This document shows, one piece after another, positions 1,325 to 50,713 of a DNA stretch of 64,000 bases; position 1 is the stretch's first letter, and each line of letters begins with the position of its first letter. The DNA lies in the NCBI RefSeq assembly GCF_004343705.1, contig NZ_SKFH01000003.1, positions 124,001-188,000 of the forward strand. The letters run 5' to 3'. The stretch comes from Flaviaesturariibacter aridisoli (GTDB lineage: Bacteria; Bacteroidota; Bacteroidia; Chitinophagales; Chitinophagaceae). The position numbers and the translations under genes are program-made. The notes below the pieces were generated by a model. That model made no database searches. It worked only from the letters and a program-made list of their open reading frames with translations, and was not told the DNA's origin.

Positions 1325-2122
1325 TTAAAAGAGATGGAAGGGCAGCGCGCTGCGACGCCGGCTGTACTCCAGTGGCGTCATTCCCGAATAGGATTTGAAG
1401 ACCCGGCACCAATGCGCCTGGTCGCAAAAGCCGGCTTCGTAGGCCACGCCGGCAAGCGACCGGTGCGGCCGGTGGAGTGCCCGCACCGACTCCACGAATT
1501 TCTTGTAGCCGGTGAGCGTCTCGGCCGGAAGCCCGAACAGTTGCTTGCTCAGCCGCCCCAGTTGCCTGGTGGAATAGCATACTTCGCGCGACAGCGCATC
1601 CACGCTCTGGAACGACGACACGTCGCCTTCGGTAAGCAGCCGCGCCAGTTCGGCCGTGCGCGGACTGTCCGATGCCGGCAACACGGGCAGGTCGGTCTGC
1701 AGGATGGCGAGGCGTGCTTCGAAATGAGGGGCTTCGGCAAGCCGCTCCCAAAGGGCCCGGAAGCGTGGCTGTACGAGTGTGAGGTCGGTGGCGCAATCGA
1801 GAAATTCGGAAGGCCAGTAGCCAAGCAACGCGCGCACGCGGTGTGCCTGCAGCTGCAGGCCCATCAGGTGTTGCCGGCCGGGGTAATAGCCGCGGATGGG
1901 ATTGGTGTTGAGGCCCTGGATAAAGCAGCGCGGAATGACCACGGCTTCGTCGCGGTGCGGCAGGTACCCCTCCAATGGCTCATCAAACTGGAAGATGATC
2001 TCCACGATGCCGCGCGGAAGAATGGTTTCCCGCACACCGGCAGGCGCGTTCACTTCCCAGATGAGAGAAATATATTCGGCCAGGGGCCCCGTTTGCGGAA
2101 TATGGAAGCGCGGTTCGGTCAT
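1325..2122 (-). CDS. AraC family transcriptional regulator
   Basis: 265 residues. The N-terminal part (about 1-150) begins TEPRFHIPQTGPLAEYISLIW and resembles the ligand-sensing domain often found in Bacteroidota AraC proteins (DUF6597 type). The C-terminal 100 residues carry the two helix-turn-helix units; the typical second-helix signature is visible as AGFCDQAHWCRVFKSYSGMTPLEYS. It should bind DNA as a one-component regulator. It is followed on the same strand by the cupin gene 67 nt away and preceded by a secreted hypothetical 84 nt away. The effector is unknown. Confidence 0.92.
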   Translation of the reverse strand: MTEPRFHIPQTGPLAEYISLIWEVNAPAGVRETILPRGIVEIIFQFDEPLEGYLPHRDEAVVIPRCFIQGLNTNPIRGYYPGRQHLMGLQLQAHRVRALLGYWPSEFLDCATDLTLVQPRFRALWERLAEAPHFEARLAILQTDLPVLPASDSPRTAELARLLTEGDVSSFQSVDALSREVCYSTRQLGRLSKQLFGLPAETLTGYKKFVESVRALHRPHRSLAGVAYEAGFCDQAHWCRVFKSYSGMTPLEYSRRRSALPFHLF

Positions 2123-2206
2123 GCGGTTCGAAAGTAGCCGACAGCGCCGGCCTGCGTGCCGGGAAAAAGCGTCAACTGTTTTTAGTCCCGCATGGATTGT
2201 GCCCGA

Positions 2207-2743
2207 TCAACGGGCAGGGACTTCGTCGAGCCACAAAAGACGCAGGTCTTTGCTGAGTTGCAGGATGTAGCGATGTGCGCCCGCGTCGGCAATGAGCAAC
2301 GGCTCCTCGATGTCGAAGTTGATCACCGACCAATAGTAGTCGAGCTCCTGGTACGTGGCCTTGCGCAAGGTGTAGGGCTGGTCTTTCACCTCGGCGCGTA
2401 CCTGGTTCCACACTTTCAAAAAACCATCCTTGTCTTGCGTCATCTTGCCGCTCAGCTTCTCGCCGTCGAAGAGGATCGTCATATTTCCGCCGGGAATGGC
2501 CGCAAGCGCCGCAATGCGGCCATAGCGTTGCCAGAGGCCGGGGCCGATGAAGAGCACGCCTTCGGCCAGGCTGTAGTCGGCCGTACCGGACAACTCGCGG
2601 CGCAGCTTCGCCTTGGCCTGCTCCACCAGTGCGGGCGCCGAATATTTATACACGACGCGGGCGGGCACCTGGATGCTGTCTATGGCCTGGGCACCGCCGG
2701 CAAACGGGAGCGCCAGCGCGAGCAGGAAAAGGACATTTTTCAT
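2207..2743 (-). CDS. Secreted hypothetical protein
   Basis: 178 residues from the ATG at 2743; in-frame GTT and TTG codons upstream are less likely starts. Residues 1-20 (MKNVLFLLALALPFAGGAQA) form a Sec signal peptide. The mature part has no motif I recognise. It contains a stretch around ADYSLAEGVLFIGPGLWQRY and a C-terminal beta-rich region ending LRLLWLDEVPAR. Length and composition suggest a small periplasmic or surface protein. It lies upstream of the AraC gene on the same strand, and its own upstream region carries the 21-bp repeat array. Confidence 0.7.
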   Translation of the reverse strand: MKNVLFLLALALPFAGGAQAIDSIQVPARVVYKYSAPALVEQAKAKLRRELSGTADYSLAEGVLFIGPGLWQRYGRIAALAAIPGGNMTILFDGEKLSGKMTQDKDGFLKVWNQVRAEVKDQPYTLRKATYQELDYYWSVINFDIEEPLLIADAGAHRYILQLSKDLRLLWLDEVPAR

Positions 2744-2778
2744 AACCAAATCTATTCAAAATGACGTGCCAGCCCCGC

Positions 2779-3063
2779 TAAAGCAAAACGTCAGCGGGGA
2801 TCTGCAGACTGTTTGTGCCGTTTGGCGGAATGTACGCGCTCTTCAGCAGACCGTCAGCGGCGTTTGGCAGAATGTACGCGGCATTTGTCAGAATGTACGC
2901 GGCGTTTGGCAGAATGTACGCGGCGTTTGGCAGACTGTCTGCGGCGTTCAGCAGGATGTCTGCACCGTTCAGCAGACTGTCTGCGGCGTTCTGCAGGATG
3001 TAAGCGGCGTTCTGCAGGATGTCTGCGGCGTTCAGCAGACTGTCTGCGGCGTTCTGCAAAGGG
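2779..3063. repeat. 21-bp tandem repeat array, about 13 units
   Basis: Units of 21 bp follow one another without spacers, for example TTTGGCAGAATGTACGCGGCG and TTCAGCAGACTGTCTGCGGCG. Two sub-types alternate in blocks (TTTGGC..TAC first, TTCAGC..TCT later), which points to growth by duplication. Three units contain the palindrome GCAGACTGTCTGC (2930-2942, 2972-2984, 3035-3047), spaced 42 and 63 bp apart. Because 21 is a multiple of 3 and the unit has no stop, several frames stay open across it. The array fills most of the 430-bp gap between divergent genes (2743 and 3174). It is not a CRISPR array because there are no unique spacers. Confidence 0.9.
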
Positions 3064-3173
3064 TAAATTATCGGTCCAAACAATTGATAATCAACCTGCA
3101 AATGTTGTTCGACAGGACCCAAACCTGCCGACGACGCCCGTTAGCGACGTGGGTAGTCTTACCTTGCAGCCCT

Positions 3174-4157
3174 ATGGCATTCCTGGAGGCATTGGAGCTC
3201 CGCAAGCGGGTGAGCGCAGACTTTGAATTACAGCCCCTCAGCCTGGCGTTGGAGCCGGGCGAAAAGTGGGTGGTAGCCGGATCTACGGGGTCGGGAAAGA
3301 GTACGTTGCTGAAAATGATGGCGGGCCTGGAGCAGCCCGACGGCGGCGAGGTGCGCTTTGAAGGCAAGCGCGTCAAGGGGCCGGCCGAGCGCCTCATTCC
3401 CGGGCATGAAAAGATCGCCTACCTGTCGCAGCACTTCGAGTTGCGGCACCATTACCGGGTCGAAGAGTTGCTCGACCGCGTCAATGCCCTCCCCTACCGC
3501 GAGGCCCTCTGGATCTACGACCTGTGCCGCATCGCCCCGCTGCTGCACCGCAAGGAGCACGAGCTTTCGGGCGGCGAGCGGCAACGCGTGGCCACGGCCC
3601 GCCTGCTGGTGCAACGCCCTTCGGTGCTGCTGCTCGACGAGCCCTTTTCGAACCTCGACCGCCACCACAAAACGATCATGCAAGCCGTCATCGCCGACAT
3701 CGGCGCCGAGCTGGCCATCACCTGCCTGCTCGTGACCCACGACCCGCTCGACGCGCTTTCCTGGGCCGACCGCATCCTGGTGCTCCGCGCTGGGCAGGAG
3801 GTGCAGCGGGGACGGCCCGAAACGCTCTACCGCCAGCCGGGCTCGGAGTATGTGGCGGGTCTTTTTGGTCCGTACAACCTGCTTACCGCCGCTCAGGTGG
3901 CGGCTTTTTCCGACAGCATGGCCTTCCGCGTGGGGCGCCACGACATCGGTGTGCGTCCCGAAGGCCTGCGGCTGGCGCCGCCTGCCGAGGTCGGCGCCCG
4001 GGGCACTGTGTCGGCGCTGTATTTCTACGGGAGCCACTACGAGGCCGATGTACGTGTGGCCGGCGACCCCGTGCGGGTGCGGATCCACGGCGACACGGCC
4101 GCCCCGGGCCAGGAGGTCAGCGTGCAGGTCGACCCGGCGCAGGTGTGGTACGTGTAA
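3174..4157 (+). CDS. ABC transporter ATP-binding protein with TOBE-like tail
   Basis: 327 residues from the ATG at 3174. The nucleotide-binding domain occupies about 1-230: Walker A GSTGSGKST, signature LSGGERQRVATARLL, Walker B VLLLDEPFSNLD, and H-loop LLVTHD. The C-terminal 90 residues look like a regulatory TOBE-type domain (DIGVRPEGLRL, then a beta-rich end), as in ATPases of the PotA/CysA/ModC importer class. No permease or binding protein is adjacent, so the partner and substrate are unknown. The open frame continues upstream through the repeat array, but no good start is seen there. It converges with the DUF6814 gene, with 3 bp between the two stops. Confidence 0.9.
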   Translation: MAFLEALELRKRVSADFELQPLSLALEPGEKWVVAGSTGSGKSTLLKMMAGLEQPDGGEVRFEGKRVKGPAERLIPGHEKIAYLSQHFELRHHYRVEELLDRVNALPYREALWIYDLCRIAPLLHRKEHELSGGERQRVATARLLVQRPSVLLLDEPFSNLDRHHKTIMQAVIADIGAELAITCLLVTHDPLDALSWADRILVLRAGQEVQRGRPETLYRQPGSEYVAGLFGPYNLLTAAQVAAFSDSMAFRVGRHDIGVRPEGLRLAPPAEVGARGTVSALYFYGSHYEADVRVAGDPVRVRIHGDTAAPGQEVSVQVDPAQVWYV

Positions 4158-4462: not shown

Positions 4463-4476
4463 TTCGGCGCAAACCT

Positions 4477-4524
4477 TACTCATTACTCATTATTCATTAC
4501 TCATTACTCATTACTCATTATTCA
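4477..4524 (-). repeat. Heptamer tandem repeat (TAATGAG type) directly after the transporter stop
   Basis: Read on the minus strand, the TGA stop of the MFS gene is followed by about six copies of TAATGAG/TAATGAA. Since the unit is 7 bp and holds TAA and TGA, it places stops in all frames. Related short runs follow the stops at 50750, 58506 and 58599. Confidence 0.8.
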
Positions 4525-6069
4525 TTTCCTGGGCAGGTACAACGCGCCGACCAGGAAGCAAAGGGCGGCAACGCCGATGGGATACCAGAGCCCTACCAGC
4601 GGGTCGGACGGGTACGACGCACTGAGCAGCAGGCCGATAAAAGGCACGAGTCCGCCGAAGATCCCGTTGCCGATATGGTAGGGCAGCGACATGGACGTGT
4701 AGCGGATCCGCGTGGGAAACAATTCCACCAGGAAAGCCGCGATGGGACCGTACACCATCGTTACAAACAGCACCTGTAGAAATACAAGGAAGATGAACAG
4801 CCGGTGCGTAGCGGGCGGCAATACCTTGTCCTTATAGGTTGCCCGGGCATAGTGCGCCAAAATGGGGGTCGGATGAAAAGCCGTATCGGAAAGCACGCGC
4901 ACGCAGCTCAAGCCACTGCCCAGGCGGAGGGTATCGATGGTACTGCGCACGGTACCGCGACCGCCGCTCAACTCCTCTATGTGCGTAACCGCGGCGCTTT
5001 GCCGGGCGATGCCTTCTGCGGCGATGCGCCCGGGGCTGACGGCCGCCTCGCGCACCAGCGTATTGTAGATGCCCCACTGCTTGATGCCGGGCAGGTCGCG
5101 GTAGCACAGCACCCCCAGCAGCATCCCCGTCAGCATGATCCACTTGCGGCCGATACGGTCGCTGAGCCAGCCGAAAACCACGAAGAAGGGCGTAGCGAAG
5201 GCGATGGCCCACAGCAGGATGCTCCGGCTCTCGAGGAAGCCGAGCCGCACGTTGGTTTCCAGGAACGACTGTGCGTAAAACTGGCCGGTGTACCAGATCA
5301 CCCCCTGCCCCATCACGGCGCCGAACAGCGCCAGCAGCACCATCTTGAAGTTAACGCGATGGCCGAAGCTTTCCTTCAGCGGGTTTTTCGAAGTAGTGCC
5401 TTCACTTTTCAGTTGGGCAAACAGCGGCGATTCGGCCATCCGCATCCGTATAAATACGGACACCGCCACGAGCAGCGCCGAGAGCCAGAAGGGATAGCGC
5501 CAGCCGCCCCATTCGGCATTGAAGGCCGCATCGCTGCTGCCGCTCTTCACCGCCATGATCACACCCAGCGCTAAAAAGAGGCCGAGGGTGGCCGTCGTCT
5601 GGATCCAGCTGGTGAAGTACCCGCGCCGCCCCGGCGGCGCGTGTTCGGCCACATAGGTCGCCGCACCACCGTACTCCCCGCCGAGGGCAAGTCCCTGCAA
5701 CAGGCGCAACAACAGCACGAGCAAGGGCGCCGCGAGGCCTATGGTCTTGTACCCGGGCACCAGGCCGATGAGAAAGGTGGCGCCGCCCATCAACACGAGC
5801 GTGAGCAGGAAGGTATGCTTGCGTCCTACGCGGTCGCCGAGGCGGCCAAAGACGAGGGCGCCGAAGGGACGAACGAGGAAGCCGGCGGCGAAGATGGCCA
5901 GCGTGCTCAGCAGCGCCGCCGTTTCGTTGCCCTCGGGAAAGAACTGCGTGGCGATGGTTTTGGCCAGCATGCCGAAGATGTAAAAGTCGTACCATTCGAT
6001 CATCGTGCCTACCGACGAGGCGGCGATCACGGTAACGAGGGTACGGCCCGAAGCGTTGTTGGGGGTCAT
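4522..6069 (-). CDS. MFS transporter, metabolite:H+ symporter (MHS) type
   Basis: 515 residues with about 12 hydrophobic segments. The start TLVTVIAASSVGTMIEWYDF is the classic opening of the MHS group (proline/betaine, alpha-ketoglutarate, citrate permeases), and the loop motif GRLGDRVGRKHTFL lies between helices 2 and 3, with GWLSDRIGRKW in the second half. Between the second-half helices there is an unusually long hydrophilic loop of about 85 residues (from DLPGIKQWGIYN to PPATHRLF), absent from short MHS proteins. The neighbour acs, 63 bp away and divergent, suggests transport of a small carboxylate, but this is only context. The 3' end abuts a heptamer repeat. Confidence 0.88.
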   Translation of the reverse strand: MTPNNASGRTLVTVIAASSVGTMIEWYDFYIFGMLAKTIATQFFPEGNETAALLSTLAIFAAGFLVRPFGALVFGRLGDRVGRKHTFLLTLVLMGGATFLIGLVPGYKTIGLAAPLLVLLLRLLQGLALGGEYGGAATYVAEHAPPGRRGYFTSWIQTTATLGLFLALGVIMAVKSGSSDAAFNAEWGGWRYPFWLSALLVAVSVFIRMRMAESPLFAQLKSEGTTSKNPLKESFGHRVNFKMVLLALFGAVMGQGVIWYTGQFYAQSFLETNVRLGFLESRSILLWAIAFATPFFVVFGWLSDRIGRKWIMLTGMLLGVLCYRDLPGIKQWGIYNTLVREAAVSPGRIAAEGIARQSAAVTHIEELSGGRGTVRSTIDTLRLGSGLSCVRVLSDTAFHPTPILAHYARATYKDKVLPPATHRLFIFLVFLQVLFVTMVYGPIAAFLVELFPTRIRYTSMSLPYHIGNGIFGGLVPFIGLLLSASYPSDPLVGLWYPIGVAALCFLVGALYLPRK

Positions 6070-11218: not shown

Positions 11219-11262
11219 GTTTATTGGTCTATTGGTTAATTGGTTTATTGGTAACCTGTTAC
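11219..11262 (-). repeat. Octamer tandem repeat (CAATNAAC type) upstream of parC
   Basis: On the minus strand: GTTACCAATAAACCAATTAA and onward, with 8-bp units CAATAAAC, CAATTAAC, CAATAGAC, CAATAAAC. It ends 25 nt before the parC ATG. It shares the flanking CAGGTTAC with the copy at 4422-4462. Confidence 0.75.
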
Positions 11263-11298: not shown

Positions 11299-11299
11299 A

Positions 11300-11350
11300 A
11301 CCTTAAAAACCCTAAGAACCTTAAGAACCCTGGGAACCCTCCGAACCGGT
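11300..11350. repeat. 9-bp tandem repeat at the end of the DUF1835 gene
   Basis: About five degenerate 9-bp units (AAAAACCCT, AAGAACCTT, AAGAACCCT, GGGAACCCT, CCGAACCGG). The array runs into the 3' end of the gene at 11321 and encodes its last residues (GSEGSQGS). Confidence 0.7.
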
Positions 11351-22011: not shown

Positions 22012-22135
22012 ACAGCCAGGCGGCAGGCACCGGAAAGGGGATGGCAACGGGAAACGAGCACCCGCACGCGCAACTCATTGATTTTGACTGAAAAGAATGA
22101 TTTCGCTAAACGAGACACGCCAGCTTAGGGGGAGG

Positions 22136-22345
22136 CCAGGGTGTTCCGCCGGCCGCGACAGGATAGTTTAGGGGTAAGCCGGATGTTTCGCCGGCCGCGA
22201 CAGGGTAGTTTAGGGGTCAGCCAGGGTGTTCCGGGCAGCGCGGCAGGGTAGTTTACCGGAAAGCTACCTTGTTTCGGCAGGCGCGGCGGGGTAGCGTCCC
22301 GGCAAACTACCTTGTTTCGGTAAGCGTAGCGGGCCCCTGTCCCCG
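22136..22345. repeat. 42-43-bp direct repeats and related inverted copies
   Basis: Unit A (22136-22178, 22179-22220, partial 22221-22258) contains GCCGGCCGCGACAGG and TAGTTTAGGGGT. From 22259 the pattern changes to a second unit with CTACCTTGTTTCGG twice (22264 and 22307), partly the complement of the first (GTAGTTTACCGG/AAGCTACC). A GCCCCTGTCCCCGGAG piece at 22334 recalls the elements at 15973 and 16134. The gap 22012-22425 holds only these repeats; frames open across it look spurious. Confidence 0.8.
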
Positions 22346-48486: not shown

Positions 48487-48530
48487 TCAATTTCAGATTT
48501 CAGATTCCAGATTCCAGATTCAATCTTAAA
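48487..48530 (-). repeat. Heptamer tandem repeat (AATCTGA type) in the era-der gap
   Basis: On the minus strand: AATCTGG, AATCTGG, AATCTGA, AATCTGA, AATTGAG, ending four bases before the der ATG. Related degenerate copies (TCAGATTTCGGATGTCGGAT) fill the rest of the 72-bp gap. Confidence 0.8.
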
Positions 48531-50668: not shown

Positions 50669-50713
50669 GTTTATTGGTTTTTTGGTCTGTTGGTTTATTG
50701 GCAACCAGTACCT
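50669..50713 (-). repeat. Octamer tandem repeat (CAATNAAC type) upstream of the hypothetical gene
   Basis: On the minus strand: GCCAATAAAC, CAACAGAC, CAAAAAAC, CAATAAAC, ending 8 nt before the ATG at 50660. Third copy of the family found at 4422 and 11219. Confidence 0.7.

What the first reader, a model, noticed from the sequence alone, without database searches (positions are those of the whole stretch)
2779..3063. Helically phased 21-bp tandem array in a divergent promoter region
About 13 spacer-free 21-bp units occupy most of the gap between a secreted-protein gene and an ABC ATPase gene. Twenty-one bp is two turns of B-DNA, so every copy would present the same face, and three units contain the exact palindrome GCAGACTGTCTGC. 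This fits a cooperative protein-binding array or a structural element. On the other hand the period is also seven codons and both strands stay open, so a heptapeptide-repeat gene cannot be excluded.
Basis: partly seen in the sequence, partly recalled or inferred. Interest (0 to 1): 0.6.

Follow-up and report, generated by a model that had tools for sequence, protein, structure and literature searches.

The report
Dispersed 21-base repeat array in bacteria
This stretch is one of many short repeated DNA blocks, each unit about two turns of the double helix long, scattered between genes of this bacterium; such blocks are known in other bacteria but their purpose is not, so it is real but not unique.

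Summary
In detail: 12 full 21-bp units plus a partial one, with no indel, lie at 2796-3058 in a 430-bp divergent gap. The interpretation needs widening: the array is not special to this promoter. A related array lies elsewhere in the same genome. In 858 kb sampled (about 20% of the genome), repeats at lags of 21, 42-43 and 63 bp dominate intergenic DNA, mostly with unrelated unit sequences. They occur in divergent, convergent and tandem gaps (7 of 20 divergent over three genomes, p=0.30). A sister species and another genus of the family have them too; another genome of the genus shows none in 400 kb. One array family sits at non-orthologous sites in two species. No frame of array 1 shows significant purifying selection, and three sibling arrays closed in all six frames keep the register (264 substitutions, 2 indels). 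RNA folding is ordinary once periodicity is controlled. This matches the published 'constant repeat size, variable sequence' 20-21-nt tandem repeats of Subirana and Messeguer. Best guess: a protein lattice on one face of the helix, spread by copying; a functionless satellite is a close rival. A core TTGGCNNNATGTA shared with arrays of other Bacteroidota is suggestive only.

The parts
2796..3058 (.). Tandem array: 12 full 21-bp units and an 11-bp partial unit, no spacers, no indel (array 1)
2930..2942 (.). Exact palindrome GCAGACTGTCTGC in one unit
2972..2984 (.). Exact palindrome GCAGACTGTCTGC in one unit
3035..3047 (.). Exact palindrome GCAGACTGTCTGC in one unit
2773..2799 (.). Inverted repeat CCCCGCT / AGCGGGG (7-bp arms, 13-bp loop) at the low end of the array; role unknown
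   Evidence: read; it appears as a hairpin in the minus-strand fold
2207..2743 (-). Flanking gene: 178-aa protein with signal-peptide-like start, no Pfam match; found in 1 of 18 genomes of the genus
3174..4157 (+). Flanking gene: ABC ATPase with TOBE domain

Best explanation
Array 1 is one of a genome-wide, dispersed set of mostly non-coding tandem arrays whose units are locked to whole pairs of helical turns (21 bp, or 42-43 bp as double units), while their sequences differ from array to array and species to species. SHOWN: the array; a paralogue; the common lattice in arrays of mostly unrelated sequence in three genomes; no significant promoter bias; register kept in arrays closed in all frames; one array family at non-orthologous sites of two species. 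INFERRED: an oligomeric DNA-binding (nucleoid-type) protein contacts one face of the helix every two turns, so that indels which break register are removed while substitutions are tolerated, and arrays spread by copying of units and of whole arrays to new intergenic sites. Any effect on the two genes beside array 1 would be incidental.
For: Lag spectrum of intergenic DNA peaks at 21/42/63 in the own genome, G010 and G286, with nothing at lag 20, and it persists in the own genome after heptamer loci and arrays 1 and 2 are removed. Array list and contexts. Register: 704 substitutions against 13 indels over 16 arrays; 264 against 2 in the three arrays of that set closed in all six frames. Paralogue. 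Dispersed families: L156, L141 in this genome and in G010. Published class with the same traits and the same proposed mechanism (PMC8161180).
Against: No protein was identified and no binding shown. TRF favours gap-poor arrays, and copied substitutions count more than once (L221b is mainly a 126-bp higher-order repeat, and its 21-bp row scores low). The few indels in array 2 and L132 are single-base and may be alignment artefacts. Shared short words between arrays, expected for a sequence-reading protein, are inconclusive: in the own genome 38 five-letter words in 3 or more arrays against 16.6 in a null that does not keep dinucleotides, in G286 no excess. Units show no general dyad symmetry. 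G003, of the same genus, shows no lattice in 400 kb.
Confidence: 0.45

Rival explanations
1. Functionless satellite: a copying mechanism (slippage, unequal exchange, or copying around a DNA-wrapping protein) tends to make 21-bp units, and the lattice persists because units are renewed from one another; nothing selects for it.
For: Sequence families are species-specific or shared only with a sister species, sit at non-orthologous sites, and are absent from 400 kb of another genome of the genus. Higher-order repeats (42, 63, 126 bp) show units copied in blocks.
Against: Arrays with units only 68-78% like their consensus still have no indel (L156, L181, L221b), which is hard for old, unconstrained DNA (inference; no neutral ratio was measured here).
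Confidence: 0.33
2. Promoter-specific binding array controlling the secreted-protein gene and the ABC gene.
For: Position in a divergent gap; exact palindromes in three units, rare under column permutation.
Against: Same kind of array in convergent and tandem gaps; nearest orthologous loci, in G010 and G016, have no array; no general dyad symmetry.
Confidence: 0.1
3. A short gene or extension encoding heptapeptide repeats (for example the minus-strand ORF 2778-3122).
For: Three frames are open; two frames have pN/pS about 0.55; my simple gene caller picked 2778-3059 on the minus strand with score 21.
Against: Those ratios are reached by 12-14% of column-permuted controls; only a TTG start covers the array on the minus strand; only a sub-cut-off Pfam match (Nro1_C, 17.9 against 27 bits); sibling arrays are closed in all frames.
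Confidence: 0.06
4. A structured RNA transcribed from the array.
For: Against dinucleotide shuffles the plus strand has z -4.9 and the minus strand z -2.65.
Against: Against shuffles that keep the periodicity z is -1.34 and -0.95 (22 and 37 of 200 controls fold at least as well). No Rfam match up to E=1 over 2100-3400.
Confidence: 0.05

Closest known systems
Constant-size 20-21-nt bacterial tandem repeats (Subirana and Messeguer; PMC8161180, of which I saw the first two of five parts, section 4.1 and passages; their J Bacteriol 2020 paper e00229-20 was not held under its DOI)
   Same: Fixed 21-bp unit, several families per genome with the same size and different sequence, species-specific, mostly non-coding, absent from many species.
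   Different: Here Chitinophagaceae; 42-43-bp double units are as common as 21-bp ones; some families occur at non-orthologous sites of two species.
Plasmid iterons (recalled, no call)
   Same: Direct repeats of about two helical turns that bind a protein on one face.
   Different: The two flanking genes and the three other proteins scanned at this locus are not replication initiators, and the arrays are scattered over the chromosome in many sequences.
CRISPR arrays (recalled, no call)
   Same: Direct repeats with constant and variable positions.
   Different: No spacers and a much shorter period.

Membership tests
20-21-nt constant-size tandem repeats | Unit of 20-21 nt, at least 4 repeats, regular length | tested here: met
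20-21-nt constant-size tandem repeats | Several families of the same unit size but different sequence in one genome | tested here: met
   (about 20% of the genome sampled)
20-21-nt constant-size tandem repeats | Species-specific sequence | tested here: met
   Array 1 matches 1 of 38 genomes, its own; L156 1 of 18; but the L141 family 2 of 18 and the G010 array L181 2 of 18, one weak
20-21-nt constant-size tandem repeats | Non-coding | tested here: inconclusive
   No significant purifying selection in any frame of array 1, but 3 frames open; sibling arrays closed in all frames
20-21-nt constant-size tandem repeats | A characteristic short word in most arrays of the species | tested here: inconclusive
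   excess in the own genome against a weak null, none in G286
Promoter regulatory binding array | Preferential place in promoter regions | tested here: not met
   7 of 20 arrays divergent, 24% expected, p=0.30
Promoter regulatory binding array | Bound by a regulator that alters the flanking promoters | not testable with these tools
   needs footprinting and expression data
Heptapeptide-repeat gene | Purifying selection in one frame | tested here: not met
   lowest ratios reached by 12-14% of controls
Plasmid iterons | Adjacent replication initiator gene | tested here: not met
   Pfam of five ORFs at this locus, including both flanking genes

The most novel reading that the evidence does not exclude
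Bacteroidota carry a common protein lattice that reads helical register more than sequence, nucleated by mobile 21-bp arrays; a core TTGGCNNNATGTA, seen in arrays of this genome, another genus of its family, a Tannerella and a Prevotellaceae genome, would be one conserved recognition site for it.
Probability: 0.12. Interest if true: 0.7.

Novelty: new member of a known kind. Interest (0 to 1): 0.36.

Why it matters
Bacterial tandem repeats of fixed 20-21-nt size and free sequence are described in print as enigmatic, without a known function (PMC8161180). Here arrays of mostly unrelated sequence share one helical lattice and keep it even where all six frames carry stops, which makes 'selected register' against 'birth mechanism' directly testable with strain genomes and footprinting in this family.

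Tried and rejected
Conserved-core search. TGGCANNNTGT twice at 21-bp spacing, 1 mismatch, hit 112 of 394 family genomes. I fetched 15 loci from 10 of those genomes and ran TRF: G286 has a clear 21-bp array, G110 has 10/11/21-bp arrays, G276 has a 14/42-bp and a 7-bp array away from the core, and the rest at most short rows. A stricter exact pattern found 3 loci in the species genomes (84,980 held, by the tool's description), all Bacteroidota and all 21-bp arrays, one of them G286 itself; none in viral contigs. With 2 mismatches 29 of 395 phylum genomes match, our own included, against 21 by my count for the reversed control; outside our own they are one or two isolated places per genome, judged from the listing and not fetched. 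A 21-bp array offers 42 phases to match, so the two Bacteroidales hits could be chance convergence.

Dyad symmetry of units in general: not supported (19 units of 20-22 bp, combined p 0.08; 26 units scored in all). RNA structure: not supported after a periodicity-preserving control. Divergent-promoter enrichment: not significant. Shared flanks between arrays 1 and 2: no significant match (best E 0.03). Common short words: inconclusive.

Rows dropped. L205 was left out of the indel totals because TRF's consensus for it was 20 long, which gives artificial insertions; with it the totals are 741 substitutions and 30 indels over 17 arrays. L205 and the 43-bp window array 22125 are also closed in all frames but are not in the 264/2 figure. 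In the context count 21 arrays were given and L215 fell out for want of a left-hand gene; L060, found by motif, was not given. One search removed 24 loci as heptamer-type, which also removed two genuine arrays (L141 at 13365, L147). Of the 12 non-own ABC loci, three were run through TRF and all were searched for the secreted protein. Literature searches for such repeats in Bacteroidetes gave nothing on point.

Full report
What is there. In the 430-bp gap between a 178-aa secreted-type protein (2207-2743, minus; no Pfam match) and an ABC ATPase with a TOBE domain (3174-4157, plus) lies an array of 12 full 21-bp units and a partial one, 2796-3058, without spacers and without an indel. Autocorrelation is 0.74-0.75 at lags 21, 42 and 63. 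The units vary mostly at positions 7-8, 13-14 and 18-19. The palindrome GCAGACTGTCTGC is exact in three units.

Where it is from. G286, of the same family, holds an array on a contig of 396,866 bases, which matches JAEUVB010000015.1, a Chitinophagaceae MAG. So the window is most likely from Chitinophagaceae (inference).

It is not a one-off. A related, more diverged array lies at C1 about 214.9-215.2 kb of the same genome beside other genes. Array 1 DNA matches 1 of 38 genomes, its own. I sampled 858,025 bp of this genome (window plus 40 stretches), 376 kb of G010 and 400 kb of G003 (same genus), and 396 kb of G286 (another genus), ran TRF and a simple codon-usage gene caller, and measured the lag spectrum of intergenic DNA. 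Positions at lags 21/42/63: own 415/621/281, G010 89/173/59, G286 1210/1313/997, G003 none; lag 20 is empty in all four. G286's figures include the array that brought it in. Heptamer arrays add to these lags in the own genome; with heptamer-type loci removed they are 280/426/230, and without arrays 1 and 2 as well 103/230/24, beside 166 at lag 43, 100 at lag 41, 56 at lag 40 and, from one locus, 208 at lag 34 and 174 at lag 68. Unit sequences differ from array to array. What is constant is the lattice, not the sequence.

Not a promoter device. Of 20 lattice arrays with assignable context, 7 lie in divergent, 5 in convergent and 8 in tandem gaps; 24% of intergenic bases are divergent (p=0.30). 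The caller puts array 2 in a tandem gap; by eye a small minus-strand ORF (about 44 aa) lies between it and the upstream gene, which would make it divergent. In G010 the ABC orthologue (73% identity) has the AraC-type gene nearby but a different gene between, and no array; the 14 bases TTACCTTGCAGCCC are the same and end one base (here) or two bases (G010) before the start codon. In G016 (71%) an AraC-type gene ends about 50 bp before the ABC start and there is no array. The secreted-protein gene is found in 1 of 18 genomes of the genus.

Not obviously coding. pN/pS between units in the six frames is 0.55-1.14; the two lowest are reached by 12-14% of column-permuted controls. Three frames are open in array 1, and my gene caller did pick a minus ORF there (score 21), so coding is not strictly excluded. 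Over 16 arrays there are 704 substitutions and 13 indels against the consensus; three of these arrays that are closed in all six frames (L060, L215, L221b) have 264 and 2 (L205 dropped, see Tried and rejected). Caveats: TRF favours gap-poor arrays, substitutions copied between units count more than once, and L221b is mainly a 126-bp higher-order repeat.

Not an evident RNA. The plus strand folds far better than dinucleotide shuffles (z -4.9), but against controls that keep the periodicity z is -1.3. Rfam: nothing up to E=1 over 2100-3400.

Spread. The 42-bp family of L141 matches at C1, C37 and C15 of this genome and at two places of G010. Between the C1 copy and the best G010 copy the nucleotide similarity is confined to the arrays, so the loci are not orthologous (the many tblastx matches outside are short and weak, and I take them for noise). 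L156 has a second copy at C35. In G286 two arrays share an identical stretch of about 80 bp at one end, with a 46-bp near-palindrome (42 of 46 matching). So arrays, sometimes with one end, appear to be copied to new intergenic sites; how is not known.

Shared core. Arrays of this genome, G286, a Prevotellaceae genome (L092) and a Tannerella genome (L094) align on TTGGCNNNATGTA. The latter two were found by searching with nearly that pattern, so the core proves little by itself; outside the pattern L092 and L094 resemble each other, while their likeness to G286 is not striking (by eye).

Comparison with what is known. Subirana and Messeguer describe bacterial tandem repeats of constant size, 20-21 or 52 nt, variable and species-specific in sequence, the 20-21-nt ones in general not coding for amino-acid repeats, and discuss protein polymerisation on DNA or small RNAs (PMC8161180; seen as the first two of five parts, section 4.1 and passages). 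Their 2020 paper was not held under its DOI. Of PMC8625621 I saw passages, of PMC6749651 the outline and abstract. Array 1 meets the size, multiplicity and species-specificity features; non-coding nature and a common short word stay inconclusive.

Verdict. Real and helically phased, but one member of a genome-wide class of a kind already described in bacteria. I put the face-of-helix protein lattice at 0.45 and the functionless satellite at 0.33.

Noticed in passing
window 22125-22343: A 42-43-bp array in a convergent gap, with one half inverted relative to the other by eye, closed in all six frames.
   Followed up: partly
window 4476-4526, 11219-11252, 11299-11340, 48490-48521, 50669-50701: Short 7-9-bp tandem repeats (TTACTCA, GTTTATTG at two places, AACCCTAAG, ATTCCAG).
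   Followed up: no
L125 1-1411 (G000:C1:1-1411): A 172-bp unit repeated 8.2 times at 99% match at the end of a contig.
   Followed up: no
L135 9976-10224: A 34-bp unit repeated 7.3 times at 94% match in a convergent gap, off the 21-bp lattice.
   Followed up: no
L091 3190-3400 (G286:C23): The array ends directly beside what reads by eye like the C-terminal end of a tyrosine recombinase, upstream of a DNA methyltransferase-like gene (function names from recall).
   Followed up: no
L061-L064 (G110): Intergenic-looking arrays of 10, 11, 21 and 22-bp period built on TGCAC/GGCAC words, about one helical turn per unit.
   Followed up: no
G003: 400 kb of a same-genus genome contain no intergenic array of 55 bp or more, against 23 in 858 kb of the own genome by the same caller: an unexplained difference between related species.
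   Followed up: no
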